Shown: positions 1 to 39,282 of the stretch, piece by piece
Numbering within the stretch: position 1 is the first letter of the stretch
Layout of the letters: every line of letters begins with the position of its first letter
Source of the DNA: Elusimicrobiota bacterium
GTDB taxonomy: Bacteria; Elusimicrobiota; Elusimicrobia; Elusimicrobiales; UBA9959
DNA length: 46,084 nucleotides
Assembly (NCBI GenBank): GCA_026388125.1
Contig: JAPLKJ010000267.1
Coordinates: 1-46,084 of the forward strand
Direction: 5' to 3'
Made by a program: the position numbers and the translations under genes
Notes under the pieces: generated by a model
Seen by the model: the letters and a program-made list of their open reading frames with translations, nothing else
What the model was told of the DNA's origin: nothing
Databases searched by the model: none

Positions 1-708
1 GATAAAGGTGGCCACAAAGATGTTGGCCGGGTGTTCGTAGATCTCGTTGGGCGTGCCTACCTGCTGGATCTTGCCTTCCTGCAGGATCACTATCTTGTCG
101 GTCATGGTCATGGCTTCTATCTGGTCGTGCGTGACGTAGATCACCGTGCCCTTGACCTTCTTGAACAGCAGCCTGAGCTCGCCGCGGGTCTTGTCCCTGA
201 GCTTGGCGTCCAGGTTGCTGAGCGGCTCGTCGAGCAGAAAAACCTTGGGATTGCGCACCAAGGCGCGGGCCAGCGCCACGCGCTGCCGCTGTCCGCCGCT
301 CAAAGCGCGGGGTTTGCGCTCCAGCAGAGCCTCGAGGCCGAGCATCTCGGTGGTGGTCTTAACGCGGGACGCTATTTCCGCCTTATCCACTTTCCTGAGC
401 CGGAGGCCCAGCGAGATATTGTCCTCTACCGAGAAATGCGGGTACAGGGCGTAGTTCTGGAACACGAAGGCCATGTCCCGGTCGCGCGGAGCCACCCGGT
501 TCATATCGCGCGCGCCTATGGCGACTTTGCCGGACGTCTGGTCCTCGAGACCCGCTATTATCCGCAGCAGGGTGGTCTTGCCGCAGCCGGAAGGGCCCAG
601 CAGCGAAACGAACTCCGTGTCCTTGACCGTGAACGAGATGTCCCGCAGCACCGGGCGCGGGGCGCCTTCGAAGGTCTTGGAGATATTGCTAAGTTCTACT
701 TCAGCCAT
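1..708 (-). CDS. Sugar ABC transporter ATP-binding protein (MalK/UgpC/MsmX type), partial
   Basis: This is the cytoplasmic ATPase that would power the sugar importer encoded by the two permease genes upstream. The 236 visible residues start at the ATG at 708 and run off the window, so the C-terminal regulatory TOBE region is missing. All core ABC motifs are readable: Walker A GPSGCGKTT (about residues 38-46), Q-loop FQNYAL (Q84), signature LSGGQ (137-141), Walker B VFLLDEP (156-162) and the switch His in THD (H194). The order and spacing match the carbohydrate (CUT1) family. It lies 10 bases after the GH35 gene in the same direction and is the last visible gene of the operon. The substrate cannot be read from the ATPase itself. 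Confidence 0.93.
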   Translation of the reverse strand, partial: MAEVELSNISKTFEGAPRPVLRDISFTVKDTEFVSLLGPSGCGKTTLLRIIAGLEDQTSGKVAIGARDMNRVAPRDRDMAFVFQNYALYPHFSVEDNISLGLRLRKVDKAEIASRVKTTTEMLGLEALLERKPRALSGGQRQRVALARALVRNPKVFLLDEPLSNLDAKLRDKTRGELRLLFKKVKGTVIYVTHDQIEAMTMTDKIVILQEGKIQQVGTPNEIYEHPANIFVATFI

Positions 709-718
709 ATAAGGTCCC

Positions 719-3055
719 TCAATAGTAGATAGTCAGTTTCCCGGCGGTGCAGCCCGGCTTGTGGCGCATTTTAATCGTTATGTCCTTGTCCCGCGCGCTC
801 GCGGTAACTTTACCCCCCGCCGCCGTAACGGAGGAGATGGCCAGGCCGGCGAAGTCTATCAGGTCCGTTTCAACCGAAGCCGTATTGTAGGCCAGCTCCA
901 TGCCGCGGTCCGTGTAGGCTATGGCGGTTATCTCGCAGGTGGCGTAACGGATCAGGGCGCCGGTCTTTAACTTGTAATGCAGCGGCACTATAACGGCGGA
1001 CCTGTTCCTCATCAGCAGCGGGAACTCTATCCTGTCGCCGTTAAAGTCCGCGGTGATGCGGCCCGGCATCACGTCGTCGTGGAAGTTGGCGACCAGCAGG
1101 AAGCCGGACTCTTTGTCCCGGCGCAGCATGGTGATCAGGTCGTAGCCGCCGGTGCTCACGCTCTTCTTCACTCCCAGTTCCGCGCAGACGGTGTCGAAGG
1201 CCGGCTTGAAGTAGTCGAACTTGTCGGAGAAGTGGAAGCCCAGCAGGCACAGCGTGCCTTTGCCCACCTTGCGCACTATGCCGCAGGGCTTGTTCCTGTA
1301 GACGGCTATCACTTTGTCGTCGGGCAGCAAATTGCCGAAGGTGTTGATATCCTGGTTGTGCAGATAGGTTTCGCGGCCCAGGAAGTCTATGGTGCGGACC
1401 TTATGGGCTTTTTCCGCCGTCAGGCCGAGGGCGTCCAGGAAGACGGGGGTCGGCTTCCAGCCCTTGTCCACGAGGAGGGTCTCGCCGCAGAACAGCAGTT
1501 TGCCCCCCTTATTCACGTAGTTGAACAGCTTACCCTGCGAAGCCGCGTCCATGAACTGGGAGGAGAACACGGCCAGCGCCGGGGCCTTTATGGCCGGGGT
1601 CTTCTGGATATCGGTGAGGCCGGTCTGGTAGCCTGCCAGGTAGGCCTGGCGGGCCAGGCCGTCGAAGAAGAATTCGTTGCGCACGGCGAACATCCTGTCC
1701 GCCATCGGGCCGTCGAGGTATTCGGTATTGTAGTATTCGCCGTAGAAGCCCAGGTCCAGGTCGGCCGCGGGCGGCATGGCCGCCGCGCCCGCGCAGATGC
1801 CGTTCACGAAGGCGCCGAAACTTTTAAGGCTCTTGTAATGGCTGCGCAGCTCGCCGCCGGAGGCCACCGGGGCCTGCCACTCGTGGTAAAGGCCGAACTG
1901 GCCCACGTTGCCCTCGTTGGTGCCGCCGGCGAACATGTAGCAGTTAAGGCCGTTCACGCCGCTCATGAAGGTGGTCTTAAGGTTGAGTTCCACGTCGGCG
2001 GGGTAAAGCCTAGGCTTGTCGCTCAGGACGCCGGTCTGCAGCTCCGCGCAGACTACGGGGGAGCCCTCGGGCGTTATGCTCCTGAGCACGGCGGTGGTGA
2101 TGGCGCTGTCGTGGTAGTTCTCGTAGTCCAGGCGGCGCATCTGGTAGGCGCCCCCGTAAATTACGCCGGGGACTTTCTCGGCGAACTTGCCGAACTTTAT
2201 AGTGGTGGTGGGCGAGTAGATGCCGCGGCCGCGCAGGTCGTAGTCGTAGAACTGCGGGATGTTTGCCAGCACGGGCGTGCGCACGCCCAGCTTCCTGGCC
2301 ATGGCGTGGAGCTTGCCGAAGTAAACGGCGTAGTATTCCTTGTAGTAGTCCCCCCAGTCCAGCAGGCAGCGGAGGTTCTCAGTCCCTTTGTAGGAGGTTT
2401 TATAAGCCGAGTTCAGCTTTTGAACGCTCGAGTATCTTTTTTTAAGGAAGTCGCGGTACATGCGGTCGGAATAGGGCGCGTAGTCGCCGATCTTGCCCAG
2501 CCAGTTGATCATGCCGATCTCGTTGCAGAGCTGGAAGAAAGGAATATTGCCGGCGGGGTGCTGGGCCGCGGTAAGCAGGGGCACCAGCTTTTCGTACCAG
2601 GCCTGCACCTTGGCCAGGAATTTGGGGTTGTTATAGGCGGGCGGGGACTGGTGATGGATGGTCTTCCCCTCGTTGGCGGCCAGGAAGGCCTCCGGGTATT
2701 TTTCGGACAGCCAGTCGGGCAGGCCTTCGTTCATCATCTCGCCGTTGGACACCGGGCCTATGCGCGGGATGAAGAAAAGGCCGCTGGCTTGCACCAGGCG
2801 CATGAATTCCAACAGGTTCCTGCGCGGATGCGTACGCCCGGTAAAGTCGAAAACACCTTCTTTCACCTCGTGCCAGCGCCAGGGGATATAGGAGGCCACG
2901 GCGTTAAGGCCGGCCTCTTTGGCTTTAGCCAGGCGGTCCGCCCAGTCTTTGGGGTCGCACCTGAAGTAATGGAACTCGCCGGAGTAGATAAAGGTCGGCT
3001 TGCCGTTCAGGATGAAGTTGCCGCCGCGCATTTCCGGCGTGGTCAAAGTTCTCAC
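719..3055 (-). CDS. Glycoside hydrolase family 35 protein, candidate beta-1,2-glucosyltransferase or beta-galactosidase
   Basis: This 778-residue protein has a GH35-like (beta/alpha)8 N-terminal half. The N-terminus FIYSGEFHYFR and NAVASYIPWRWHE (about 51-63) are family-typical. The likely acid/base is E179 in FFQLCNEIG and the likely nucleophile is E338 in VVCAELQTG. The second half looks like a glutamine-amidotransferase-like fold plus beta domains, as in large GH35/GH42 enzymes. No signal peptide is visible, so it should be cytoplasmic. Family GH35 is mainly beta-galactosidase, but an Ignavibacterium GH35 member encoded with beta-1,2-glucanase homologues is a beta-1,2-glucosyltransferase. 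The neighbours here (GH94, GH144-like) make that the preferred reading, by inference only. Its start overlaps the stop of the GH94 gene by 4 bases, implying coupled translation. Confidence 0.85.
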   Translation of the reverse strand: MRTLTTPEMRGGNFILNGKPTFIYSGEFHYFRCDPKDWADRLAKAKEAGLNAVASYIPWRWHEVKEGVFDFTGRTHPRRNLLEFMRLVQASGLFFIPRIGPVSNGEMMNEGLPDWLSEKYPEAFLAANEGKTIHHQSPPAYNNPKFLAKVQAWYEKLVPLLTAAQHPAGNIPFFQLCNEIGMINWLGKIGDYAPYSDRMYRDFLKKRYSSVQKLNSAYKTSYKGTENLRCLLDWGDYYKEYYAVYFGKLHAMARKLGVRTPVLANIPQFYDYDLRGRGIYSPTTTIKFGKFAEKVPGVIYGGAYQMRRLDYENYHDSAITTAVLRSITPEGSPVVCAELQTGVLSDKPRLYPADVELNLKTTFMSGVNGLNCYMFAGGTNEGNVGQFGLYHEWQAPVASGGELRSHYKSLKSFGAFVNGICAGAAAMPPAADLDLGFYGEYYNTEYLDGPMADRMFAVRNEFFFDGLARQAYLAGYQTGLTDIQKTPAIKAPALAVFSSQFMDAASQGKLFNYVNKGGKLLFCGETLLVDKGWKPTPVFLDALGLTAEKAHKVRTIDFLGRETYLHNQDINTFGNLLPDDKVIAVYRNKPCGIVRKVGKGTLCLLGFHFSDKFDYFKPAFDTVCAELGVKKSVSTGGYDLITMLRRDKESGFLLVANFHDDVMPGRITADFNGDRIEFPLLMRNRSAVIVPLHYKLKTGALIRYATCEITAIAYTDRGMELAYNTASVETDLIDFAGLAISSVTAAGGKVTASARDKDITIKMRHKPGCTAGKLTIYY

Positions 3056-5364: not shown

Positions 5365-6198
5365 TTAACCTTTGACCGCGCCGGCTGCTATGCCTTTTAT
5401 GTAATGTTTCTGGGCCATCAGGAAAATGATCACCGCGGGCAGCACCACCACCACGGCGCCCGCCATCAGCAGGCCCCAGTCGGTGTTGTACTGGCCGTTC
5501 AGGCCGGCCAGGGCCACGGGCAGGGTGTACTTGTCCTCGCGCAGCATGATGATGAGCGGCCAGAGGAAATCGTTCCACGCGCCGATAAAGCTGAACACGG
5601 TAAGGGTGGCGATGATGGGCCGGCACAGCGGCAGCATGATGCGCCAGAAGATGGCGAACTCCGAGAAGCCGTCGATGCGGGCCGCTTCCAGGATCTCTTC
5701 CGGGATCTCCGTCATGAACTGGCGGATCATGAAGATGGCGAACACCGCGGCCGTGCCCGGCAGCACCAGCCCGGCGTAAGAATTGAGCAGGCCCATGGAT
5801 TTAAGGATAAGGAACACCGGCAGCATGGTGACCTGGCCCGGCACCATCATGGTGACCAGCAGCAGGGCGAACAGCTTTTCCCGGCCGGGGAATTTCAGCT
5901 TGGCGAAGGCGTAAGCGGCCATGGCGTTGAACAGCACGGACAGGACCGTGATGCTTACCGCGTAGATCACGCTGTTGAAGAAGTGCAGCCACATGTTGAC
6001 CGCGGCGAAAAGGTTCCTGTAGCCGTCCAGCGTCCAGAGCTGCGGCAGGATGGTCGGGGTCTTGGTGAAGATCTCGCCAGGGCTCTTGAACGACGTGGAC
6101 AGCATCCAGACGAACGGAAAAAGTGTGATGACTACGGACACCAGCATGAAGGCGTAGAAAACGAACTTATAGGCGGGCGAATGCCGGACGGCGGCCAT
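5365..6198 (-). CDS. Carbohydrate ABC transporter permease (MalG/UgpE family)
   Basis: A 277-residue inner-membrane permease with about six transmembrane helices. The start is set at the ATG at 6198 because it gives MAAVRHSPAYKFVFYAFMLV, a normal short cytoplasmic N-terminus and first helix; longer in-frame extensions read antisense to the neighbouring permease. The cytoplasmic EAA loop that docks the ATPase is clear: EAARIDGFSEFAIFWRIMLP. The stretch FVWMLSTSFKSPGEIF after helix 1 is typical of the MalG side of CUT1 importers. The start codon shares one base with the stop of the fused binding-protein/permease gene (TGATG), so the two halves of the channel are probably translated together. 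Confidence 0.94.
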   Translation of the reverse strand: MAAVRHSPAYKFVFYAFMLVSVVITLFPFVWMLSTSFKSPGEIFTKTPTILPQLWTLDGYRNLFAAVNMWLHFFNSVIYAVSITVLSVLFNAMAAYAFAKLKFPGREKLFALLLVTMMVPGQVTMLPVFLILKSMGLLNSYAGLVLPGTAAVFAIFMIRQFMTEIPEEILEAARIDGFSEFAIFWRIMLPLCRPIIATLTVFSFIGAWNDFLWPLIIMLREDKYTLPVALAGLNGQYNTDWGLLMAGAVVVVLPAVIIFLMAQKHYIKGIAAGAVKG

Positions 6199-8402
6199 CA
6201 GAAGTTCCCCTCCATCTTTTTCTGGACCCTGAACTGCACGGCGGTGAAAGCGAAGATCAGCCCGAACAGGATGTAGGCCATGGCCGAGGCGTAGCCCAGG
6301 TTGTAGAACTTGAAGCCCTGCTGGTACATGTACAGCACCACGGACATGGTCGAGTTCAGCGGGCCGCCGCCGGTCATGATGTAAGGCTCGGCGAAGAACT
6401 GCAGGTAGCCGATGGTGGTCATCACGATCACGAAGAAGGCGGTGTTCCTGAGCATGGGCAGCGTGATGTACCAGAATTCCTGCCGGGTGCTGGCCCCGTC
6501 GAGCGCTATGGATTCGTAGAGCGAATCGGGGATGGACTGCAGCGCGGCCACGAAGATGATGGTGTTGTAGCCGAAGCCCTTCCACACCGCCATCAGGATC
6601 AGCGACGGCAGCGCCAGCCATTGGTTGGACAGCCAGTTCTGCCCGGGCAGGCCGACATAGCTGAGCGCCAGGTTGAACAGGCCGAACTCCGGGTTGTACA
6701 GCCACCGCCAGATCATGGCCACGGCCACCATGGTGGTGATAACAGGGATAAAGTAAGCCACCCGGAAGAAAGCCTTGGCCCGCAGCACCTGCGCGTTCAG
6801 CGCCAGCGCCATGGCGAGGGAAAGCGTAACGCTTACCGGCACGCCGATAAAAGCGAACACCAGGGTATTGCGCAGGCCGGCCAGGAAGACCGGGTCCCGC
6901 AGCAGGCCGGAGTAATTCTCCAGGCCTACGAAAACCACCTTGCTCCAGTCGTTGACGCCGTACATGTTCCAGTTGGTCATGCTGGCGATGAACGAGGCGA
7001 TGATGGGGATAAAAAGGAAGACGGCCAGGATCAGCACCGCCGGCAGCAGGAACAGGAGGGCTATGGGCTGGAACTTGCCGCCGGGAGCGGCGCGGGGGCC
7101 TTTCCTGAGATGGAGGAGCACGGCGCAGACCGGGAGCAGGAAGAGGAACAGCGCCAGGCCTATTTTGAACGCCACGCTCTGCTGCCGTTCGGACTTGGCG
7201 AGGATCTTTTCTATGCGGGCTGAGAGTTTTTCACGGGCGGCCTGCGGAGTGACCCTGCCGAAAACCGCTTCTTCCACGGCGTCGTTGATATTGCCGGCTA
7301 TGTTCTCCCACTCCGCCACCTGGGGCGGCGCTTTGGCAGTATCCAGCTCTACCCTGAAGGAGGCCAGCTGCGGGTTCTTGGCGAGGGCCGGGGCCAGCCA
7401 GGCTTTGCGGCTGGCGGGCAGGTCGCCGGACAGGGTGTACCATCGGGCCTGCATCTCCGGCCCGGCCAGGAACTCCATGAACTTCCAGGCAAGGGCTTTG
7501 TTGGGCGAGCTCCTGAACAGCACCAGGTTGCAGCCGCCCATGAAGGAGGCGCGCTTTTCCCCCGCCGGCAGCGGGGCGGTGGCCCAGCGCCCGTTCAAGA
7601 GCGGCTTGTTGGTCTGCAACTGGGAGATCATCCACGGGCCGGATATAAAAACTGGATAGTTTCCTGACTCGATAGCCGTAAGCTGGTCCGTGTCGTTGCC
7701 GCCTTCCAGCGGCGCAAGGTCCTCGTCGAAGAACCGCTTGAGGTAGCCTATGGTGCCTTCGAACTTGCCGGCGGTAAGCGGCGAGTCTTTAAGCAGTTCG
7801 CCGCCGTTCTGCCAGTAGAACATCAGGAAGATCTGCCAGTCGTTGGTGGGCAGCGAGAAAGCGTAACCGCCGTTCTTGGAAGCCTTCAGCGCTTTGGAGA
7901 ATTTGTAGAAGCTTTCCCAATCGGCAGGTAATTTTTTATAGCCGGCTTTGGCGGCCAGGTCCGTGCGGTAGTACATTACCCGCGTGTCCACGTACCAGGG
8001 CAGTCCGTACCATTTGTCCTGGTAGTAATTGGAATCGCGCGCGCCGGGGAAGAAGTCCGCGGTGTCGAGCGCTGAAGATCCCATGAATCCGTCCAGCGGT
8101 TCGATGGCGTTCATGGCCCTGAATTCCGGCATCCAGGTGGTGCCCATCTGGCTGATGTCCGGCGCCATGTTCCCCACCACCGCGGTTACCAGCTTTTCGT
8201 GCGCCCCCGTCCACGGTATGCCCTGCGTTACTACTTTTACGCCGGGGTTCCGGGCCTCAAAAATTTCCGCCGCCTGGCGTATAAGCTTGCCTTCCGCGCC
8301 TATGGCCCAGACGTTAAGCTGCTCACCAGCAAATACGGTGACGCTGCCCTGGCATAAGAGTATGCCGAGCGCCGCGTAAAACACCTTATTCTTTAAGATC
8401 AT
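6198..8402 (-). CDS. Fused extracellular solute-binding protein and ABC permease (MalE-MalF-like)
   Basis: A 734-residue single-chain fusion. Residues 1-26 form a signal peptide or anchor (ALGILLCQGSVTVFA). Residues 27 to about 405 are a family-1 sugar-binding protein: LNVWAIGAEG near the N-terminus, GNMAPDISQMG (77-87), WYGLPWYVDTRVMYY (131-145) and FISGPWMIS (252-260). A hydrophobic helix at about 412-432 is followed by a basic linker (HLRKGPR) and a MalF-type permease from about 446. The EAA-like loop SIALDGASTRQEFWYITLPM (631-650) marks the permease. This topology puts the binding domain outside and returns the chain to the cytoplasm before the first permease helix. CUT1 importers usually have separate binding proteins. 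Reading is continuous with no stop. It overlaps the upstream hydrolase gene by 4 bases. Confidence 0.93.
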   Translation of the reverse strand: MILKNKVFYAALGILLCQGSVTVFAGEQLNVWAIGAEGKLIRQAAEIFEARNPGVKVVTQGIPWTGAHEKLVTAVVGNMAPDISQMGTTWMPEFRAMNAIEPLDGFMGSSALDTADFFPGARDSNYYQDKWYGLPWYVDTRVMYYRTDLAAKAGYKKLPADWESFYKFSKALKASKNGGYAFSLPTNDWQIFLMFYWQNGGELLKDSPLTAGKFEGTIGYLKRFFDEDLAPLEGGNDTDQLTAIESGNYPVFISGPWMISQLQTNKPLLNGRWATAPLPAGEKRASFMGGCNLVLFRSSPNKALAWKFMEFLAGPEMQARWYTLSGDLPASRKAWLAPALAKNPQLASFRVELDTAKAPPQVAEWENIAGNINDAVEEAVFGRVTPQAAREKLSARIEKILAKSERQQSVAFKIGLALFLFLLPVCAVLLHLRKGPRAAPGGKFQPIALLFLLPAVLILAVFLFIPIIASFIASMTNWNMYGVNDWSKVVFVGLENYSGLLRDPVFLAGLRNTLVFAFIGVPVSVTLSLAMALALNAQVLRAKAFFRVAYFIPVITTMVAVAMIWRWLYNPEFGLFNLALSYVGLPGQNWLSNQWLALPSLILMAVWKGFGYNTIIFVAALQSIPDSLYESIALDGASTRQEFWYITLPMLRNTAFFVIVMTTIGYLQFFAEPYIMTGGGPLNSTMSVVLYMYQQGFKFYNLGYASAMAYILFGLIFAFTAVQFRVQKKMEGNF

Positions 8403-10315
8403 GCACCTTTAATTATCTGCAGCTCGCCCAGGTAGGTGGCCGGTTCCAGGAAGAACCAGTTGAACTTGGCGTCCGAACCGAGCTTGCGGTCAATGTTGCG
8501 CGCCGCCAGCGAAAAGCCCACCCGGCCTTCTCCGAGGCCGAAGACCTGCCTTTCCAGCGCCAGCACCGCCTCGTAGCCCCCGGCGGTGACGGCGGAGTCC
8601 GCTATGCGGCAGGCCCCGGCCGTTCTTTCCGGGTGGAAAAATTCGCGGACGCGCACCCCCCCGGCGGCCGGAGAGAGAATGATCTGGTAATCGTCGGCCC
8701 CGCCCCAGGCGAACTTATTGTCGGAGGAGTCCAGATATACTTCAATGGAATCGTCCTCGTACATGCGTTCCTCGGGATGGGTGGAGACCAGCTCGCTGTC
8801 CTTCACTTCGAATCTAAAAAAAAAATACCGGCTGCTCGCCAGCATCTTCGCGGTCACTTTATAACCCGGCTGGCGGTTGAGGCCGCTCTGCAGGTAGCCG
8901 GCGTCCAGTTCTACGGACTTGCCGGCTTTTTTCCACAGCCCGGAGTTAAGGGCGAGGTCATCCGGCTTGGCGGCGTCGGCTACGCGCTCTACGTTCACGA
9001 AAGGCCGTTTTTGCAGGAAGTAAGCGGCCAGTTCCACGGCAGGCTCCTGCGCGCGCGCCGAGGCTTTTCCGAAACCCGCGGCCTTCATACCTTTCTGTAC
9101 CTCGGGCCGGGACATGAACAACCGCCAGATCAGGCCGCTGCGGTAGTTCTCTATCATCAGGACGGTAGGCCCCACGTTTATGCCGTAGGCGTCGGGCGCG
9201 AAGAAGTCCCGGTCGATATTAAAGGAGTCCGCGAAGCCGTACCTGCCCCACAGGTCCGTGCGGTACCTGGCGTAATAGTTCCTCATTGCGGCTATGGAAT
9301 ACTCGGGCGTGAAAACGATGGAGGCGGCGGCGGCGGACGGCGCCACGGTGCCGTCATGCAGCGCCGGGCCGGGAGGCGCCCCGTAGGCTTTGTACCCGTC
9401 GGGGCCGATGCTGGCGGTAAGGCCCCAGGAGTTCTCGCCGTAAGTCTTAAAGGACGCGGAGCTGTCTATGCAGAACTGCCGGTTGGCGAGGGTGGCCTGC
9501 ACGGAGTTCTCGAAATAATCGGCGAAACCGTCCCGCTTGTTGCGGAAGTCTATAAAGGCGTGGGAAAACTGGTGCGTGAACAGCGGCGGGCTGATGATGA
9601 GCTCGTGACCCTTGTACTTGCCCCGCGGCCTTTTTATGGCTTCCCAGCTTTCCGCGATCAGGGGATAGGTGGGAGAGCCCATAGCCAGTATGTACATTAC
9701 CATGCTCTCGTTATAATCGCTCCAGACGGAAGGGAGAAAGGTCTTTCCCGGCTTCCAGCCCATGGTCAGGAACGGCGTGCCGTTGGCCATCCATTTCCAG
9801 TCTGCCCGTTCGTAAAGTTTTTTAGCCAGGTCTTTTATCTCCGGGCTTTCAAAATACTGGGCAGCGGTCAGCGCGCCGGCCAGGAACAAAGCCGTGTCTA
9901 TGGAAGAAAGCTCGCAATCCCAGACGCGCTTGCCGGTTCCCATATCCACGAAGTGATAGAAGAAACCGTGTTCAGACTCCATTTTCTCGCTGAAAAACCT
10001 AAGCGTGGTCTTTACCTGCGCCTCAGCCGCGTCTTTGCTTATCCAGCCGCGTTCCGCGCCCGCGGCAAGCGCGGCGAGGCCGAAGCCCACCGCGGATATA
10101 GACGCCGGAGCATATGTAAAGTCCGGGGATCTTGAATTGGAGGCTTTGTCCAGCACCAGACCGTTGGCGGGGTTGACTGCTTTTACGAAATATTGGAAAG
10201 ACTGGCTCTCCACCAGGTTCAGGAACTCGGCGTCCGTCTTGTCCATGGCGGACAGGTGCGGCTGACATACGGAAAATAAAGAGATGAGCAGGAAAAAGAA
10301 AAATTTTGAAACCAT
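8399..10315 (-). CDS. Secreted glycoamylase-fold hydrolase (GH144-like, putative endo-beta-1,2-glucanase) with C-terminal CBM9-like domain
   Basis: First gene of the operon, 638 residues. A signal peptide (MVSKFFFFLLISLFSV, cut near residue 23) indicates export. Residues about 28-415 match the glycoamylase-type (alpha/alpha)6 domain (Pfam Glycoamylase): VESQSFQYFVKAVNP, ISAVGFGLAALAAGAERGWI, VWDCELSSIDTALFLAG (131-147), WSDYNESMVMYILAMGS (198-214) and the late ENSWGLTASIGPDGYKAYGAP. This fold contains the GH144 endo-beta-1,2-glucanases and a domain of cyclic beta-1,2-glucan synthases. Residues about 455-636 form a beta domain with DDSIEVYLDSSDNKFAW, which resembles CBM9-type binding modules. 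It would cut polymer outside the cytoplasm so that the fused importer can take up the oligomers. Specificity is inferred, not shown. Confidence 0.85.
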   Translation of the reverse strand: MVSKFFFFLLISLFSVCQPHLSAMDKTDAEFLNLVESQSFQYFVKAVNPANGLVLDKASNSRSPDFTYAPASISAVGFGLAALAAGAERGWISKDAAEAQVKTTLRFFSEKMESEHGFFYHFVDMGTGKRVWDCELSSIDTALFLAGALTAAQYFESPEIKDLAKKLYERADWKWMANGTPFLTMGWKPGKTFLPSVWSDYNESMVMYILAMGSPTYPLIAESWEAIKRPRGKYKGHELIISPPLFTHQFSHAFIDFRNKRDGFADYFENSVQATLANRQFCIDSSASFKTYGENSWGLTASIGPDGYKAYGAPPGPALHDGTVAPSAAAASIVFTPEYSIAAMRNYYARYRTDLWGRYGFADSFNIDRDFFAPDAYGINVGPTVLMIENYRSGLIWRLFMSRPEVQKGMKAAGFGKASARAQEPAVELAAYFLQKRPFVNVERVADAAKPDDLALNSGLWKKAGKSVELDAGYLQSGLNRQPGYKVTAKMLASSRYFFFRFEVKDSELVSTHPEERMYEDDSIEVYLDSSDNKFAWGGADDYQIILSPAAGGVRVREFFHPERTAGACRIADSAVTAGGYEAVLALERQVFGLGEGRVGFSLAARNIDRKLGSDAKFNWFFLEPATYLGELQIIKGA

Positions 10316-11429: not shown

Positions 11430-13466
11430 TTATAGGAAGTAATCGAAGTCGCGCTCGGTACGCACGTAGCGGCGCAGGCGGAAGATGTGCGCCGGCAGCT
11501 TGTGCGGGTCCAGCTCCACGTAATTCTTCGGGCCCCGCCACAGGAAATGCCTGTCGGAGAGCAGGTCGTGCATCTGGTACGGTTTGTCGGCCGCCAGCCC
11601 CAGCTCATGCAGCGGCAGTTCCACCAGGCCCGACTGCCTGTGGTCGGGGTCGAGGTTCACCACCACCATCACCAGGTTGTCGCCGTCGTGCTTGGAGTAG
11701 CAGATCAGCTGCTCGTTGGTGGTAGGGTAGAAACGCAGGTTCTCGTCGCTCTGCAGGGCCGGGTTCTCCCGGCGGATGCGGTTGACGCGCGCGATCTGGT
11801 CCTTCAGGCTGTCCTTGCGGTCGAGCGGCCAGTTCTTCAGCTCGTATTTTTCCGAATCTTTGTACTCCTCGTGGCCGGGCGAATGCGGCTCGCGGTCGCA
11901 CAGCTCGAAAGCCGGCCCGTAGATGCCATAGCTCGCGCCCAGCGTGGCCGCCAGCACCTGGCGCACCATGAAAGCGGGCCGCCCGCCGAACTGCAGGTAT
12001 TCCGTAAGAATGTCCGGAGTGTTCGGCCAGAGATTAGGCCGCAGGAATTCCTTCGGTTCCGTCTTCGCCAGCTCGGTGAAATAAGTCTCGAGCTCCCACT
12101 TGGAGTTCCGCCAGGGGAAATAATTATAGGACTGCGTAAAGCCGGCCTTAGCCAGACGGTACATAACCCGGGGCCTGGTAAAAGCCTCGGCGAGGAAGAT
12201 CAGGTCCGGGTTGTCGCGCTTTAGTTCGCCTATGACCCATTCCCACATCGCGAACGGCTTGGTGTGCGGATTATCCACGCGGAAGATGCGCACGCCCTGC
12301 GCCATCCAGAACTCAAAAACGCTCAGCACCTCGTCCCACAGGGGCTTCCAGTCGCGGCAGGCGAAATCCAGCGGATAAATGTCCTCGTATTTCTTCGGCG
12401 GGTTCTCGGCGCAGCGCAGGCTCCCGTCCGGGCGCTTCTGGAACCATTCCGGGTGCTCTTTCAGCCAGGGGTGATCGGGCGAGCACTGCAGGGCGATGTC
12501 CAGCGCTATCTCCAGGCCGTGCTCTCCGGCCGCCGCAACTAGCTTCTTGAAATCTTCCAGCGTACCCAGCTCCGGGTTGACGGCCTTGTGGCCGCCTGTC
12601 TTGTCACCGATGGCCCACGGGCTGCCGGGGTCGCCCGGTTTCGCCGTAAGAGTATTGTTCCGCCCTTTGCGGTTGGTGATACCCACCGGGTGTATGGGCG
12701 GCAGGTAGAGCACGTCGAAACCCATTTCCGCTATGTAGGGCAGGCGCGCGGTAAGGTCTTTGAACGTGCCGTGTTTGCCCGGCTTGGGGGAAGTCGAGCG
12801 CGGGAAGATCTCGTACCAGGTGCTGAAGCGCGCCTTGACGCGGTCTGCCGTCACCTCGAGCTCCCGCCCGTGCCTGACAAGCCCGGTCTCGTCGCCCCAG
12901 CGGGAGAACAGCCCGGCCAGTTCGGGGTCGGACAGCCTGGCCGCTTTTTCGCGCTGCTCGCCGCCGGCCCCGATGTCCCGCGCCAGCTCCTTAAGCCGCC
13001 TGGCGTCGGGCGTACCCGCGGCGCGCTCGGCCGCGGCCGAGATAAGCCCGGACCCCACCGCGAATTCCACCCGCAGGTTCTGCCCGGCCTCCAGCCGTTT
13101 CTTCAGGTCGCGCAGCCAGGTCAGAAAAGGATCTATGCGGGCCTCCACAGTATAAAGGTAGCGCCCCGGAGCGGTGATGGTGAACTCGGCTTTCCAGCGG
13201 TCATTGCCCGCGGGCCGCATGGAGACGCGCGTCCAGTCGGGATCGCCTTCGCGCCGGTAAAGCATGAAGGCTACCAGTTCGTCGTGACCGTCGGCGAAGA
13301 TATCGGCCTCGACGCAGACGCTCTCGCCGGTGACGCGCTTTACGGGGAAACGGCCGCCGTCTATTTCCGGGCGGACTTTCTCTATGACTACCCGCTCGAC
13401 GGCCCGGGACTCGGTCTTTTCCGGCGCCGCGGCGCGCTCTATGATCTTTTCAGTTTTCCTGGGCAT
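11430..13466 (-). CDS. glgE: Alpha-1,4-glucan:maltose-1-phosphate maltosyltransferase GlgE
   Basis: A 678-residue GH13 subfamily 3 enzyme that adds maltose units from maltose-1-phosphate to alpha-glucan chains. An N-terminal beta domain (to about 205) precedes the TIM barrel: FSTWYEIFPRSTSP (214-227), LYLPPIHPVG (253-262), ALDIALQCSPDHPWL (321-335). The nucleophile is D398 in IFRVDNPHTKPF and the acid/base is E427 in FLAEAFTRP. Their 29-residue spacing matches characterised GlgE. The motif AGFTQSYNYFPWRNSKWEL is also diagnostic. The start at 13466 has GGAGG upstream. The GlgM-like GT4 encoded two genes upstream would provide the substrate. It lies 66 bases after treZ and is the last gene before the terminator. 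Confidence 0.95.
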   Translation of the reverse strand: MPRKTEKIIERAAAPEKTESRAVERVVIEKVRPEIDGGRFPVKRVTGESVCVEADIFADGHDELVAFMLYRREGDPDWTRVSMRPAGNDRWKAEFTITAPGRYLYTVEARIDPFLTWLRDLKKRLEAGQNLRVEFAVGSGLISAAAERAAGTPDARRLKELARDIGAGGEQREKAARLSDPELAGLFSRWGDETGLVRHGRELEVTADRVKARFSTWYEIFPRSTSPKPGKHGTFKDLTARLPYIAEMGFDVLYLPPIHPVGITNRKGRNNTLTAKPGDPGSPWAIGDKTGGHKAVNPELGTLEDFKKLVAAAGEHGLEIALDIALQCSPDHPWLKEHPEWFQKRPDGSLRCAENPPKKYEDIYPLDFACRDWKPLWDEVLSVFEFWMAQGVRIFRVDNPHTKPFAMWEWVIGELKRDNPDLIFLAEAFTRPRVMYRLAKAGFTQSYNYFPWRNSKWELETYFTELAKTEPKEFLRPNLWPNTPDILTEYLQFGGRPAFMVRQVLAATLGASYGIYGPAFELCDREPHSPGHEEYKDSEKYELKNWPLDRKDSLKDQIARVNRIRRENPALQSDENLRFYPTTNEQLICYSKHDGDNLVMVVVNLDPDHRQSGLVELPLHELGLAADKPYQMHDLLSDRHFLWRGPKNYVELDPHKLPAHIFRLRRYVRTERDFDYFL

Positions 13467-13532
13467 AAGGCCTCCGATAAATTAATTCCGGTTCCAATTA
13501 GATTCTAAATAACTTCGCGACAGTAAATACAG

Positions 13533-15440
13533 TTAAATCCCTGAAACAGCCCCGTCCGTTCCCTTACCGTACAGCACTACGCAGCGCGGCGCCAGGGAAA
13601 ACTCCGCCGGGCCGCCGGCCAGGCGCTCCGGGGCCGGGCTGCCGGGCCCCCCCCACTGCGGCACGGCCGAGTCCAGGAGCTTGGTCCAGCTCCCGCCGGG
13701 CAGTTCCAGCTTCAGCCTGCCCGGCTTTTTCGCGAAATTCAGAACGAAGAACGCTTCCTCCGCCCCCGCGCGGCGGAACACTGCCAGTATTCCCGCCTCC
13801 TCCCGGAGGTCGACGCCGGTATTTTCCCGGTCGAGACCGGCCAGCGCGGGCTGCTCCCTGCGCAAAGCGTAAAGGCGGCGGTAGAAACTCCGGAGAACGG
13901 CGTGGTTCCCCTTAAGGCGCAGCCCCCAGTCCAGCCGGGAGCGCAGGAAAGCGGCTTCCTTGTTGGGATCGGGAAGCTTCCCGCTCCCCGCGGCCGCGAC
14001 GAACGCCTTGCGCCGGCCCAGGCGCACCGCTGCGGCCAGTTCCTTGTCGGAATGATCGGTAAAATAAAGGAACGGCGCCTCTTCCCCGTACTCCTCGCCC
14101 ATGAACAGCAGCGGAACGAAGGGCGACAGGGCCACCGCGCCGGCCGCAAGCTTCAGCGCCTCCGGGTCCGCGAGGGCGGCCAGCCGCTCGCCGCCGGGGC
14201 GGTTGCCCGCCTCGTCGTGGTCCTGCGCGAAAACCAGGAACTGCGCTCCCGAATGGCCGTCCGCGCTTCGGCCGTGGCGCCGCCCGCGGCAAGCCGAATA
14301 TTGGCCCGAATAAACGAAAGCGTCGCGGTAGGACCGGGCCAGGTCCCGGAGCCCCGCATAATCGCGGTACTTCCCCGTGCGTTCGCCGGTCAGCGCTGTG
14401 TGCAGAGAATGATGAAAATCCTTGCAGTACTGCGCGTCGCAGCCCCAGCCGCCCGCTGCCGGCGGCCGGATCACGCGCGGGTCGTTCAGGGAGCTCTCCG
14501 CTATTATCTGTATGCGGCGGCCCCGGGCGCGGCCGAGCCCGTGCGCGGCGGCCGCCAACTCCTCTACGAAGGGCACGGCGGAAAAGTCGCGTATGGCGTG
14601 CACCGCGTCCAGGCGCAGCGCGTCTATATGGAATTCGCCCAGCCAGCGGACGGCGCTTTCGATGAAGAAACGGCGCACCCCGTCCGAACCCGCGCCGTCG
14701 AAGTTGAGCGCCTGGCCCCACGGGGTCTTATAGTCCGAAGTGAAATAGGGCCCGAAATCCCGCAGGTAGTTGCCTTCCGGCCCGAGGTGATTGTAAACCA
14801 CGTCGAGCATGACGGCGAGGCCGCGCAGGTGGCAGGCCTCCACCAGGCGCTTCAGGCCCCGCGCTCCGCCGTAGGACCCCTGCGCGGCGAAGGGATAGAC
14901 CCCGTCGTAGCCCCAGTTGCGCGCGCCGGGGAACTGCGCCACCGGCATAAGGGCCACCGCCGTCGCTCCGAGGTCTTTCAGCGCGTCCAGCCGGGGGATT
15001 ACGCCGGCAAAAGTGCCCTCTCCGGAAAACGTCCCCGCATGCAGTTCATAGATCACGAAGCGTTCCAGGGGCAGGCCTTTCCAGTTCCCATCCTTCCATT
15101 TATAGGCAGGGTCCGCTACCGCGGACGGGCCGTGGACGCCGCGCGGCTGGGCCCGGGAAGCCGGGTCAGGCCTTTCCGGGCCGCCGTCAAGACGGTAGAA
15201 ATATTCTGTCCCCGGCCGCGCGTCCTCCAGGGTGGTCCAATGATAGCCTGAGCCGTCCGTTGTCAGCGGCCTCAGCTGAGGCCGCGGCGAGGTTATGCGC
15301 AGCTCTACCCGCCCGGAGGAGGGCGCCCACACCAGGAATTCGCAGCGGCCCCGCCCCAGGTAGCGCGCGCCGAGGCCGGACGGAAGGCCGACGGGAGAAT
15401 TACGATCGTCAGAAAGTTCTTCCGCGGCCTTTTTTCGCAT
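13533..15440 (-). CDS. treZ: Malto-oligosyltrehalose trehalohydrolase TreZ
   Basis: A 635-residue GH13 enzyme that releases trehalose from maltooligosyl-trehalose. The N-terminal CBM48/E-set domain reads [17 protein letters not shown] (33-49). The barrel has [12 protein letters not shown] (128-139), [18 protein letters not shown] (175-192) and [15 protein letters not shown] (212-226). The nucleophile is D278 in [10 protein letters not shown], the acid/base is E315 in IIAESSLND, and the third acid is in [11 protein letters not shown]. The order [26 protein letters not shown] is TreZ-specific rather than branching enzyme. Its partner TreY is not in the window. It is 2 bases from the GT4 stop, so the two are probably co-translated. 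Confidence 0.93.
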   Translation of the reverse strand: [635 protein letters not shown]

Positions 15441-15442
15441 GA

Positions 15443-16645
15443 TTATTTAACCAGGCTCCGGTACAGGGCGTGGGTCTTTTTGGCCACGCCGGCCCAGCTG
15501 AACTGCGTTTCGGCCCGGCGGCGGCCCGCGTCCGCGAATTTTTTCCGCAGCGCCGGGCTGCGCAGCACCCGGTTAAGCGCGGCCGCCAGGTCGCGCGAGA
15601 ATTTTTCCGGGTCGCGCGGCTCGTAAGTGCCGTCCTTCTTCGCCTGGAAAGGCACCAGCAGCCCGGTCTTCTCCGGCACCACCACCTCCAGGATGCCGCC
15701 CACGGCCGAAGCCACCACCGGCGCGCCGCAGGCCATGGCCTCGACGTTGATTATGCCGAAAGGCTCGTAGATGGACGGGCAGCAGAAAGCCGCGGCGTGG
15801 CTGTAAAGCTCTATCACCTCGCTCTTCGGCAGCATTTTTTCTATCCAGATCACGTTCTTGCGCGTCTTCTGTATCCTGGCCACGCCGGCCGCCATCTCGG
15901 CGGCTATCTCTTTGGTGTCCGGCGCGCCGGCGCAGAGCACGACCTGCGCTTCGGGGTCGATGCGGGGAATGGCGTTCACCAGGTGGATTATCCCTTTCTG
16001 CCGGGTGATGCGCCCGACGAAAAGCACATAAGGCCTGGCGGGGTCTATGCCCCATTTGCGCAGCGCCGCGGTGGAGGAACTGGGGCGGTATTCCTGCAGG
16101 TCTATGCCGTTGTGGATCACGTGTATCCTGGAGGCGGGGACGTTGTAGCAGGCCATGACGTCCTTTTTCATCCCGGCCGAGACCGCGATCACGGCGTCGG
16201 CGGCCTCGATGGCGGTCTTCTCCACCCAGCTGCTCAGGTCGTAGGCGCCGCCCAGCTGCTCGCGCTTCCACGGCCGGTGCGGCTCCAGCGAATGGGTGGT
16301 CAGCACAAAGGGCACTTTGAACAGGAGCTTGGCGAAGAACGCGCCGAGATTGGTGTACCAGGTATGACAATGAACAATGTCGGCGGTATTGTTCTTGCAG
16401 AACTCGAGGTTCACGCTCAGCGCTTCCAGCGCCTTGCCGAAGCCTTTTTGCGCGTCTTTGGAGAGCCCGGGCCAGGGCTTGTAGCCCGTGACCTGCAGGC
16501 GCGGCTTTTTCACACGCTGGTCCCCGAAACAGCGCACTTCCACTTCCATGAGCTTGGCCAGTTCGCGCGTGAGATACTCCACCGCCACTCCAGCCCCGCC
16601 GTAGACGTACGGCGGATATTCGTTCGTATATAAGACCACTTTCAT
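15443..16645 (-). CDS. glgM: GT4 glycosyltransferase, GlgM-like (alpha-maltose-1-phosphate synthase / Corynebacterium-type glycogen synthase)
   Basis: A 400-residue GT-B retaining transferase. The N-terminus VVLYTNEYPPYVYGGAGVAV is the hallmark of the actinobacterial GlgA/GlgM group, followed by LTRELAKLMEVEVRCFG. The Rossmann motif PYVLFVGRITRQKG (about 205-218) and the donor-site EPFGIINVEAMACGAPVVAS (about 297-316) are intact. GlgM joins ADP-glucose to glucose-1-phosphate to make maltose-1-phosphate, the GlgE donor. The presence of glgE two genes away, and of a separate GT5 glycogen synthase in the same run, favours that role over simple elongation. GGAGG precedes the ATG at 16645. Confidence 0.85.
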   Translation of the reverse strand: MKVVLYTNEYPPYVYGGAGVAVEYLTRELAKLMEVEVRCFGDQRVKKPRLQVTGYKPWPGLSKDAQKGFGKALEALSVNLEFCKNNTADIVHCHTWYTNLGAFFAKLLFKVPFVLTTHSLEPHRPWKREQLGGAYDLSSWVEKTAIEAADAVIAVSAGMKKDVMACYNVPASRIHVIHNGIDLQEYRPSSSTAALRKWGIDPARPYVLFVGRITRQKGIIHLVNAIPRIDPEAQVVLCAGAPDTKEIAAEMAAGVARIQKTRKNVIWIEKMLPKSEVIELYSHAAAFCCPSIYEPFGIINVEAMACGAPVVASAVGGILEVVVPEKTGLLVPFQAKKDGTYEPRDPEKFSRDLAAALNRVLRSPALRKKFADAGRRRAETQFSWAGVAKKTHALYRSLVK

Positions 16646-16682
16646 GGCAGACCTCCGGGATATGACTGAATATTCAACCAGT

Positions 16683-17426
16683 TCAAAGCTTTATGCGCAT
16701 GCCATCGCGGGCGGCAAAGGTGTTTTTAAACGTCTTGCGGGCGAGCGCGGCGGCTTTCTTCCTGTCGCTTAATTCCGGATAGGCCGCCGGATCGAAATGG
16801 AGCAGCGCAAGCTTTCCGGCTCCGGCTTCCCGGGCCAGGGCGGCCGCCGTCCGGGGGTTCATATGAGACCACCCCGGATGCCCGTTCCCCCGCAGAAAAG
16901 AACATTCCGACAGGAGCAGGTCCGCTTTCCCGGCCAGCTTCACGGAATTTTCGCAATAGCCGGTGTCGGTACAGAATGCTATCGTCCTGCCGTCGATCTC
17001 GAACCTGTAGCCCAGCACCGGCCCCGAGTGAACCAGAGGCAGGCACGAGAACTTGAACGGTATTTTACCGGCTTGTGAAGGCAGTTCCAGCACCTCCGCT
17101 TTGTACCGCAGGTCCTTCAGCGGCACTGTGAACGGCCTGCGCAGCAGCGAAGCCAGGACCCGGCGCGCGCCCGCTCCGCCGCAGATCTTCAGCCCTTTTT
17201 CGAGGTCGAACTTCAGCAGCGTGTGCAGGCCGGCGATATGGTCCAGGTGGAAGTGGCTTAAGAACAGATAGACCGGCTTAGCACCGTCCACATATTTATT
17301 CAGTTTGCTGAAGCCGTTCCCGGCGTCCAACACGATATCGTATTCCCGGGTCTTTATCAGAACGCAAAGGGTATTAGCTGTTCCCGTATCGTACCAGCCG
17401 TTGGTGCCCAGGAATATAATCTCCAT
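16683..17426 (-). CDS. MBL-fold metallo-hydrolase (RNase Z-like)
   Basis: A 247-residue metallo-beta-lactamase fold protein. The metal motif HFHLDHIAG matches HxHxDH, an upstream DAGNG gives another typical strand, and later ligands fit LVHSGPVLGY, FCTDTG and ALLHFDP. This resembles small RNase Z/ElaC-like hydrolases, but no exosite is evident and the substrate is unknown. I chose the ATG at 17426 (MEIIFLGTNGW) because homologues typically begin at this first strand and a G-rich site precedes it. An in-frame ATG at 17444 would add six residues. It sits between glgA and glgM with tiny gaps, so it is cotranscribed with alpha-glucan genes, but no role there is established. Confidence 0.85.
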   Translation of the reverse strand: MEIIFLGTNGWYDTGTANTLCVLIKTREYDIVLDAGNGFSKLNKYVDGAKPVYLFLSHFHLDHIAGLHTLLKFDLEKGLKICGGAGARRVLASLLRRPFTVPLKDLRYKAEVLELPSQAGKIPFKFSCLPLVHSGPVLGYRFEIDGRTIAFCTDTGYCENSVKLAGKADLLLSECSFLRGNGHPGWSHMNPRTAAALAREAGAGKLALLHFDPAAYPELSDRKKAAALARKTFKNTFAARDGMRIKL

Positions 17427-17445
17427 AACCCCCCCGCTCGCCATC

Positions 17446-18903
17446 TTAAAGCTGCCTGCGCTGGGCGGCGATGTTGAAGAGCTTCAGGTAGACCTCGGCC
17501 GACCTGCCCCAGGAGTAGTCGCCGCTCATGGCGTTGCGGACCATCATGTTCCAGTTCTCGACCCAGCCGTGCAGGGAAACGATATGGCCCAGCACGGACC
17601 TTAATTGCCCCTCGTCGGCGTGGTCGATGGCGAAACCGTTCGAGTCTTTGGGCTCGCCGTTGTAGAACACGGTGTCCTTAAGGCCGCCGGTGCGGGTGAC
17701 CAGCGGCAGCGAGCCGTAGCGCATGGAGATCATCTGCGGGAGGCCGCAGGGCTCGAAGCGCGAGGGCATGATGAAGATATCGGAGCCGCCGTAGATCCTG
17801 TGCGCCAGCGCCTCGTCGAAGCCGGACCTGAACGCCACGCGCCGCGGGTTGGCGGCCGCCAGCGCCCCCAGCGCGTCGGTCAGGCCGGGGTCGCCCACGC
17901 CCAGCACCACGAACTGTATCTTGTCGAGGAAATCCGGGGCGGCTTTCAGCATGATATCCAGGCCTTTCTGATGATCGAGGCGGCTCACCACGCCGGCCAG
18001 GATAAGGTCCTTGTTCTCCTCCAGCCCGAGTTCCTTCTGCAGGGCTTTTTTGGCGGCGGCCTTGCCGCGCTGGAAACTTTTCAGTTCATAGCCGCGCTCG
18101 AGGAAAGTGTCGGTGGCCGGGTCCCAGATCTCGTCGTCGATGCCGTTGAGGATGCCGAACAGGTCGGTGTTGCGCGACCGCAGCACGCCCTCCAGGCCGT
18201 GGCCGAATTCCGGGCGGTACTGGATCTCGCTGGCATAGGTGGGGCTTACGGTGGTAATGATGTCGGCGTAGACCAGGGCCGCTTTCATGAAGTTCAGCCC
18301 GCCGTAGAACTCCAGTTTCTCCGGCGTAAAGTCCAGCCAGGAGAAGCCGGCCTTGGCCATGGAGTCGCGCGAGAACATGCCCTGGTAGGCGATATTATGG
18401 ATGGTGAAGACCGAGGCGGTCTTGGCGTAGAAAGAGTCGATGCGGTAAAGCGTGCGCAGGTAGGCGGGGATCAGGCCGGTCTGCCAGTCGTGGCAGTGTA
18501 TGATATCCGGCTTGAAGCCGATGAACTTGGCCCCTTCCAGCGCGGCGCGCGAGAAGAAGATGAAGCGCTCGTCGTTGTCCTCGTAATCGCCGGAGGGCGA
18601 GCGGTACATGCCGGGCCTGTCGAAATATTTCGGGTTCTCGATGAAATACACGGCCACCTTGCCCCATTGCACCCGGCTCATGGTGGCGGTCTCCAGGCGG
18701 TTCCCGACCGGGACCAGGAAGCTGCCGCCGGCGGCCTTGGGCGAGAAAGCCCCGCCGCCGATATTGCGGTAGCGGGGCAGGAAAAGCACTACCTCGGCGT
18801 TCTCCGCGCGGGAAAAGACCTGCGCCAGCGCCCCGGCCACGTCGCCGAGCCCGCCGGTCTTGCAAAAAGGGAACGCCTCGCTGGCGGTAATAAGTATTTT
18901 CAT
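17446..18903 (-). CDS. glgA: Glycogen synthase GlgA (GT5, ADP-glucose)
   Basis: A 485-residue GT5 enzyme of normal length. It extends alpha-1,4-glucan from ADP-glucose. The N-terminus MKILITASEAFPFCKTGGLGDVAGAL contains the KTGGLGDV nucleotide-sugar loop. DIIHCHDWQTGLIPAYL, VFTIHNIAYQGMF and ILNGIDDEIWDPATD are family signatures. The donor site near the C-terminal third is IMPSRFEPCGLPQMISMRYG, then TRTGGLKDTV. It starts 34 bases after the GalT-like gene and ends one base before the alternative MBL start. Having both GlgA and a GlgM-like GT4 suggests a classical and a GlgE-type route to storage glucan. Branching enzyme and GlgC are not in the window. Confidence 0.96.
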   Translation of the reverse strand: MKILITASEAFPFCKTGGLGDVAGALAQVFSRAENAEVVLFLPRYRNIGGGAFSPKAAGGSFLVPVGNRLETATMSRVQWGKVAVYFIENPKYFDRPGMYRSPSGDYEDNDERFIFFSRAALEGAKFIGFKPDIIHCHDWQTGLIPAYLRTLYRIDSFYAKTASVFTIHNIAYQGMFSRDSMAKAGFSWLDFTPEKLEFYGGLNFMKAALVYADIITTVSPTYASEIQYRPEFGHGLEGVLRSRNTDLFGILNGIDDEIWDPATDTFLERGYELKSFQRGKAAAKKALQKELGLEENKDLILAGVVSRLDHQKGLDIMLKAAPDFLDKIQFVVLGVGDPGLTDALGALAAANPRRVAFRSGFDEALAHRIYGGSDIFIMPSRFEPCGLPQMISMRYGSLPLVTRTGGLKDTVFYNGEPKDSNGFAIDHADEGQLRSVLGHIVSLHGWVENWNMMVRNAMSGDYSWGRSAEVYLKLFNIAAQRRQL

Positions 18904-39230: not shown

Positions 39231-39282
39231 CAGTTGAAGCAGTAAGGCCCCGCATAAGGCGGCCCGAAAAAAAGAGGATACC

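What the first reader, a model, noticed from the sequence alone, without database searches (positions are those of the whole stretch)
6198..8402. Sugar-binding protein fused to a MalF-type permease
A single 734-residue frame carries a signal peptide, a full family-1 solute-binding domain, a hydrophobic helix (412-432), a basic linker and a full MalF-like permease. Binding-domain fusions are known in some amino-acid and osmolyte importers, but they are not the usual design in CUT1 sugar importers. The extra helix gives a topology that works, so the fusion appears functional rather than an assembly artefact.
Basis: seen in the sequence. Interest (0 to 1): 0.6.

Follow-up and report, generated by a model that had tools for sequence, protein, structure and literature searches.

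The report
Sugar importer with tethered binding protein
In these uncultured bacteria the sugar-catching protein and one half of the membrane channel of a sugar importer are made as a single chain; this is a real design, conserved in three phyla and apparently invented more than once, and here it sits in a gene set for eating β-1,2-glucan.

Summary
The fusion is real. Window 6198-8402 on the minus strand encodes one 734-residue chain: signal peptide, family-1 solute-binding domain (27-404), an extra transmembrane helix (about 410-434), a short basic linker and a MalF-type permease with an intact EAA loop. It is not an assembly join: the same single-frame design occurs in at least 19 of 295 Elusimicrobiota genomes sampled, in 19 of 40 genomes of the phylum of a Wallbacteria MAG, and in two Hydrogenedentes-group genomes; the linker is under purifying selection. 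It is the second gene of a tight six-gene operon: GH144 endo-β-1,2-glucanase-like, fusion, MalG, GH94 (nearest solved relative: the GH94 domain of cyclic β-1,2-glucan synthase), GH35 (nearest: β-1,2-glucosyltransferase) and a MalK/UgpC ATPase cut by the contig end. The binding domain is closest to Xanthomonas MalE (3uor) and Listeria β-1,2-oligoglucan-binding Lin1841. Best reading: a CUT1 importer for β-1,2-gluco-oligosaccharides with one tethered receptor per heterodimeric channel. A tree plus AU test rejects a single origin for all fused CUT1 proteins found (p = 0.0035), so the design arose at least twice. No report of a CUT1 fusion was found in the open library. New variant of a known kind.

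The parts
6198..8402 (-). SBP-MalF fusion gene, 734 aa, CUT1 receptor and permease subunit in one chain
8328..8402 (-). signal peptide, residues 1-25
   Evidence: hydrophobic stretch 7-25; low-confidence helix 2-18 in the model; cleavage site inferred
7191..8324 (-). family-1 solute-binding domain, residues 27-404; like 3uor and Lin1841 (5ysb)
   Evidence: Pfam PF01547 and PF13416; phmmer E 1e-80 and 3e-71; Foldseek target TM-scores 0.90 and 0.93
7101..7175 (-). extra transmembrane helix TM0, residues 410-434
   Evidence: hydropathy; model helix; present in all fused relatives tested
7065..7106 (-). short basic linker, residues 433-446, predicted cytoplasmic
   Evidence: LRKGPRAAPGGKFQ; net positive in all fused relatives tested
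6201..7064 (-). MalF/UgpA-type permease domain, residues 447-734
   Evidence: BPD_transp_1 528-730; UgpA model 447-727; helices in the model
6456..6518 (-). EAA coupling loop of the permease domain, residues 629-649
   Evidence: YESIALDGASTRQEFWYITLP
5365..6198 (-). MalG/UgpE-type second permease, 277 aa; its start overlaps the fusion's stop codon by one base
   Evidence: Pfam PF00528, NCBIfam UgpE, coordinates and EAA loop
3052..5361 (-). [quoted passage not shown]
   Evidence: Pfam; phmmer 8rf9 464 bits against 337 for cellobiose phosphorylase 3qde
719..3055 (-). GH35 enzyme, best matched by beta-1,2-glucosyltransferase IaSGT
   Evidence: Pfam; phmmer 7vkw E 1e-86
1..708 (-). MalK/UgpC-type ATPase, N-terminal 236 aa, cut by the contig end; Walker A, LSGGQ, Walker B and H-loop present
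   Evidence: NF008653 366 bits over positions 1-235; motifs
8399..10315 (-). secreted GH144-type endo-beta-1,2-glucanase with a CBM9-like domain; overlaps the fusion gene by 4 bases
   Evidence: Pfam PF10091 and PF06452; phmmer 4gl3, 8xul, 5gzh

Best explanation
The gene makes the receptor-plus-permease subunit of a CUT1 (MalFGK2-type) ABC importer. The signal peptide exports the binding domain to the periplasm. TM0 then crosses the membrane from outside to inside, the basic linker stays in the cytoplasm, and the following helices form the usual N-in MalF core. The chain pairs with the separate MalG and two MalK/UgpC ATPases, so each heterodimeric channel carries exactly one tethered receptor. 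The operon predicts beta-1,2-gluco-oligosaccharides as cargo: a secreted GH144 enzyme cuts beta-1,2-glucan, the tethered domain captures the pieces and hands them to its own channel, and the GH94 phosphorylase and GH35 enzyme process them inside. Shown by sequence: one frame, domain order, extra helix, operon, conservation and selection. Inferred: topology, stoichiometry, cargo and transport.
For: One conserved frame with both domains. Homologues with the same architecture in Elusimicrobiota, a Wallbacteria MAG and its phylum and the Hydrogenedentes group. Linker dN/dS 0.13-0.41 in eight pairs. Extra helix plus positive segment in all fused proteins tested, absent from unfused ones. Model pLDDT 83.5 with helices 410-434 and 445-474. 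Receptor closest to 3uor and to Lin1841, whose beta-1,2-oligoglucan complexes are solved. GH144, GH94 and GH35 neighbours each have beta-1,2-glucan enzymes among their best solved matches; GH144-fusion-MalG-GH94-GH35-MalK recurs in L003, L006, L007, L009 and L010. Xanthomonas sacchari has GH144-SBP-MalF-MalG as separate genes, SBP and permease overlapping by 4 bases. A similar cluster in Ignavibacterium album was linked to beta-1,2-glucan by assay of its GH35 enzyme (PMC8861115).
Against: No experiment exists for any fused CUT1 protein found here. The chain could be cleaved after export. Ligand-contacting residues of Lin1841 were not compared one by one, because its paper is not held. Some clade I members show no such GH enzymes in the stretch fetched (L013; L139-L141), so cargo may vary within the clade. 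MalK is truncated in the window.
Confidence: 0.82

Rival explanations
1. The chain is made as one precursor but cleaved between the binding domain and TM0 (or at TM0), so that the receptor works as an ordinary soluble protein.
For: The linker evolves faster than the domains and is the least certain part of the model after the signal peptide. Co-translation would already give equal amounts of both parts.
Against: A transmembrane helix with a positive C-terminal flank is kept in every fused protein tested and is seen again in the other fused clades.
Confidence: 0.1
2. The importer is a working fusion, but its cargo is another beta-glucoside or a broader range of oligosaccharides rather than beta-1,2-glucan.
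For: GH35 and GH94 families hold other specificities; the GH94 scores only 25 bits against the 1,2-beta-oligoglucan phosphorylase 5h3z. Some family-1 binding proteins bind several beta-glucosides (structures 7c63-7c71).
Against: Four proteins of the operon point independently to beta-1,2 linkages.
Confidence: 0.12
3. The fusion is an assembly or sequencing artefact: a lost stop codon or joined contigs.
For: The window is from a fragmented metagenome-assembled genome of 311 contigs.
Against: The same frame is open in dozens of other assembled genomes, at about 45-90% identity, with purifying selection on the linker.
Confidence: 0.01

Closest known systems
CUT1 importers (MalEFGK2, UgpBAEC) with separate genes
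   Same: Same binding-protein family, MalF/UgpA-type and MalG/UgpE-type permeases with EAA loops, same ATPase family, same gene order SBP-permease-permease.
   Different: Here receptor and MalF-type permease are one chain joined by an extra transmembrane helix and basic linker.
GlnPQ-type importers (polar amino acid family)
   Same: Receptor domain at the N-terminus of the permease chain, tethered by a linker; described in PMC8025302.
   Different: GlnPQ is a homodimer with two receptor domains per chain, four per transporter. Here one domain per chain and, by CUT1 logic, one per heterodimeric transporter. Different permease family and cargo.
OpuA-type importers (osmoprotectant family)
   Same: Receptor fused to permease (own knowledge; van der Heide and Poolman 2002 is cited in PMC7034087, but is not held).
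   Different: Receptor at the C-terminus of a homodimeric permease (own knowledge); different substrate class.
Listeria innocua Lin1841 beta-1,2-oligoglucan system and Xanthomonas MalE (3uor)
   Same: Closest solved relatives of the binding domain; Xanthomonas sacchari has the same gene order with a GH144-type gene.
   Different: Receptor and permease are separate genes in Listeria and Xanthomonas.
Ignavibacterium album IaSGT gene cluster
   Same: GH144, a GH94 like the cyclic-glucan-synthase domain, the GH35 beta-1,2-glucosyltransferase and a Lin1841-like binding protein in one cluster (PMC8861115).
   Different: The paper speaks of a binding protein (IALB_1187) and the passages found mention no fusion with a permease; its genes were not examined here.

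Membership tests
CUT1 (TC 3.A.1.1) sugar ABC importer | Family-1 solute-binding protein | tested here: met
   PF01547 157.8 bits and PF13416 138.3 bits, over cut-off
CUT1 (TC 3.A.1.1) sugar ABC importer | Two different MalF- and MalG-type permeases with EAA loops | tested here: met
   UgpA and UgpE models best for the two permeases, though below equivalog cut-offs; EAA loops
CUT1 (TC 3.A.1.1) sugar ABC importer | MalK/UgpC ATPase | tested here: met
   N-terminal 236 aa at 1-708 minus strand; complete frames in L003, L006, L007, L009, L010; regulatory C-terminus not visible in the window
CUT1 (TC 3.A.1.1) sugar ABC importer | Receptor and permease as separate polypeptides (usual design, not a defining feature) | tested here: not met
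   one frame; because family membership rests on the domains and not on this, it stands as a variant
GlnPQ / OpuA-type chimeric importers | Receptor covalently joined to the permease | tested here: met
   works like them in this respect
GlnPQ / OpuA-type chimeric importers | Homodimeric permease of the amino-acid or osmoprotectant family | tested here: not met
   permease is MalF/UgpA type with a separate MalG partner; not a member
beta-1,2-glucan utilisation cluster | GH144 endo-beta-1,2-glucanase | tested here: met
   PF10091 and best PDB matches 4gl3, 8xul, 5gzh; activity not tested
beta-1,2-glucan utilisation cluster | beta-1,2-specific GH94 phosphorylase | tested here: inconclusive
   [quoted passage not shown] linkage specificity not shown
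beta-1,2-glucan utilisation cluster | Receptor binds sophoro-oligosaccharides | not testable with these tools
   homology to Lin1841 only

The most novel reading that the evidence does not exclude
Covalent tethering of the receptor is a recurrent, selected alternative design of CUT1 sugar importers, evolved two or three times in little-studied phyla, giving a heterodimeric importer with exactly one permanently attached receptor. Such a transporter could not follow the cycle proposed for MalE, in which loaded receptor leaves the channel, and would be a natural test of why most diderm bacteria keep the receptor free and in excess.
Probability: 0.6. Interest if true: 0.6.

Novelty: new variant of a known kind. 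Interest (0 to 1): 0.48.

Why it matters
Receptor-permease fusions are described for homodimeric amino-acid and osmoprotectant importers, where two or four receptors sit on one channel. A fused CUT1 importer is heterodimeric and so should carry one receptor only: the simplest tethered case. The E. coli maltose system, the model for this class, has been argued to be regulated by loaded MalE leaving the channel (PMC3328499); a tether removes that freedom, and nature supplies unfused relatives (Xanthomonas, Listeria) for comparison. The repeated origin suggests that the design pays under some conditions. The locus also predicts β-1,2-glucan use in uncultured phyla.

Tried and rejected
The first AlphaFold2 run with only the 12 fused rows was poor (pLDDT 59); adding unfused halves gave 83.5. 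A 1655-aa open frame around the fusion in G232 (L104) looked like a triple fusion, but its first ~900 residues read as out-of-frame noise before a normal signal peptide. Apparent full-length single tblastn pieces in Listeria and Rhizobium plasmid records were adjacent unfused genes. Chloroflexota matches were unfused pairs wherever the frames were examined. The G264 match with three stops is an ordinary unfused pair, not a broken fusion. The single TGA reported in G347 and G349 does not interrupt the fused frame. No match among 398 Pseudomonadota genomes at E 1e-120, but that run scored only two candidates per genome and had no positive control, so it is weak evidence. Ten paper searches found no described CUT1 fusion; most subscription papers are not held.

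Full report
WHAT IS THERE. The frame at 6198-8402 is on the minus strand and encodes 734 residues. Pfam finds SBP_bac_1 (39-319), SBP_bac_8 (43-347) and BPD_transp_1 (528-730) in it; NCBIfam gives UgpA, GlcT and MalF as the nearest permease models and GanS and MalE among those for the receptor, all below equivalog cut-offs. Hydropathy shows a signal peptide, a separate helix at 414-432 and then the permease. An AlphaFold2 model built from 33 rows has mean pLDDT 83.5 and pTM 0.72; it shows a helix 410-434, a loop 435-444 and a helix 445-474. Foldseek matches the receptor part to 3uor and to Lin1841 (5ysb, 5ysd-f) with target TM-scores of 0.85-0.93.

NOT AN ARTEFACT. Eleven loci found by one scan of genome contigs (L003-L013) hold the fusion in one frame at 46-90% identity. 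A sample of 295 Elusimicrobiota genomes gives full-length single-frame matches in 19 genomes from several families (a lower bound because only three candidates per genome were scored). Within the window's own genus the gene is patchy: 5 of 32 genomes have it complete and two more have it cut by contig ends. The phylum of the Wallbacteria MAG holds it in 19 of 40 genomes, some twice, and the two genomes of the Hydrogenedentes MAG's phylum both hold it. The linker region (405-445) has dN/dS 0.13-0.41 in eight pairs, against 0.08-0.19 for the receptor and 0.02-0.14 for the permease, so it is translated and constrained, though less than the domains.

THE EXTRA HELIX. A CUT1 permease of the six-helix kind has its N-terminus inside the cell (own knowledge), whereas the receptor is outside; a direct fusion would be topologically impossible. 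In all fused proteins of the first set the linker contains a hydrophobic helix (Kyte-Doolittle 1.63-3.56) followed by a segment with net charge +2 to +8, as the positive-inside rule asks; unfused receptors end without such a helix. The same holds by eye for the more distant fused proteins.

THE OPERON. In order on the minus strand: GH144-type enzyme (10315-8399), fusion (8402-6198), MalG (6198-5365), GH94 (5361-3052), GH35 (3055-719), MalK/UgpC ATPase (708 to the contig end). Neighbouring genes overlap by one to four bases or lie 3-10 bases apart. The GH144-type enzyme is closest to the putative glucoamylase 4gl3, then to XCC2207 (8xul) and the endo-β-1,2-glucanase 5gzh. The GH94 is closest to the GH94 domain of cyclic β-1,2-glucan synthase (464 bits, against 337 for cellobiose phosphorylase and 25 for the oligoglucan phosphorylase 5h3z). 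The GH35 is closest to the β-1,2-glucosyltransferase IaSGT. Full copies of the operon, MalK included, are seen in L003, L006, L007, L009 and L010 (in L006 and L007 one enzyme is split over two frames). A published cluster in Ignavibacterium album has the same enzyme types and a Lin1841-like receptor (PMC8861115). Cargo is therefore most likely β-1,2-gluco-oligosaccharides; this is inference from four homologies, not from an assay.

ORIGIN. In a tree of concatenated receptor and permease halves all fused β-1,2-type proteins form one group (clade I) whose nearest unfused neighbour is Xanthomonas sacchari, where GH144, receptor, MalF and MalG lie in the same order and receptor and permease genes overlap by four bases. 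Listeria, with the same receptor type, has the two genes in the same frame separated by a stop codon and a short spacer. Support for clade I is 0.95-0.97 by FastTree but only 83% SH-aLRT in the better model. Two further fused clades turned up in the phylum of the Wallbacteria MAG: clade II (L142-L148) and clade III (L149, L150). One clade III locus sits beside a MurNAc-6-phosphate etherase over its curated cut-off and a BadF-type kinase, suggesting a cell-wall sugar as cargo. Holding all fused proteins together as one clade is rejected (p-AU 0.0035), and clades I and II together too (p-AU 0.011). The groups were seen before being tested and some branches are long, so I read this as good evidence for at least two origins and moderate evidence for three.

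HOW IT LIKELY WORKS. By analogy with MalEFGK2 the receptor closes on the sugar, docks on its own channel, ATP binding opens the channel outward and the sugar is handed over. The difference is that the receptor cannot leave. In E. coli, maltose-free MalE binds the channel with about 79 nM affinity and dissociates when loaded (PMC3328499). A tether keeps receptor concentration at the channel high without mass production of soluble receptor, but forbids a pool of loaded receptor. Each complex should have one receptor, because the partner permease MalG carries none. Apart from the cited values, all of this paragraph is inference.

KNOWN OR NEW. Receptor-permease fusions are well known for GlnPQ and OpuA (own knowledge). 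I found no description of one in CUT1 in the open library, and none of the 60 best solved structures listed for the fusion matches both halves. Pfam models recognise both domains, so automatic databases probably already contain such chains; what seems new is recognition of a conserved, recurrent CUT1 design and its link to β-1,2-glucan operons.

Noticed in passing
L150:4551-9554 (G335) and L149 (G337): A separate clade of fused CUT1 receptor-permeases; in L150 it is followed by MalG, a BadF-type kinase and an N-acetylmuramic acid 6-phosphate etherase, suggesting a tethered importer for a cell-wall amino sugar.
   Followed up: partly
L142-L148 (G317, G324, G323, G320, G326, G325, G337): Another clade of fused CUT1 receptor-permeases with unknown cargo; neighbours in L144 include a 5'-nucleotidase and a D-aminopeptidase, in L145 a nucleoside phosphorylase.
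   Followed up: partly
L115:335-2575 minus (Rhizobium rhizoryzae plasmid NZ_CP049251): A 746-aa protein with a LacI DNA-binding domain, a LacI-type sugar domain and then a full SBP_bac_1 domain: a regulator fused to what is normally an extracellular receptor.
   Followed up: no
G000:C70:2523-5394 and orthologues across the genus: A second, widely conserved CUT1 system whose MalF-like subunit has about 95 extra N-terminal residues with hydrophobic segments; it has its own full-length UgpC-type ATPase.
   Followed up: no
window 37656-45642: Two adjacent genes read like a PfaD-type enoyl reductase and a 2119-aa multidomain synthase with three near-identical tandem acyl-carrier repeats, resembling polyunsaturated or secondary fatty acid synthases; read by eye only.
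   Followed up: no
window 11430-18903: Near the operon, on the same strand, lies a glycogen or maltosyl-phosphate cluster: a GlgE-type maltosyltransferase, an alpha-amylase-family enzyme, a glycosyltransferase and a starch-synthase-like gene (first three by Pfam; the last by eye).
   Followed up: no
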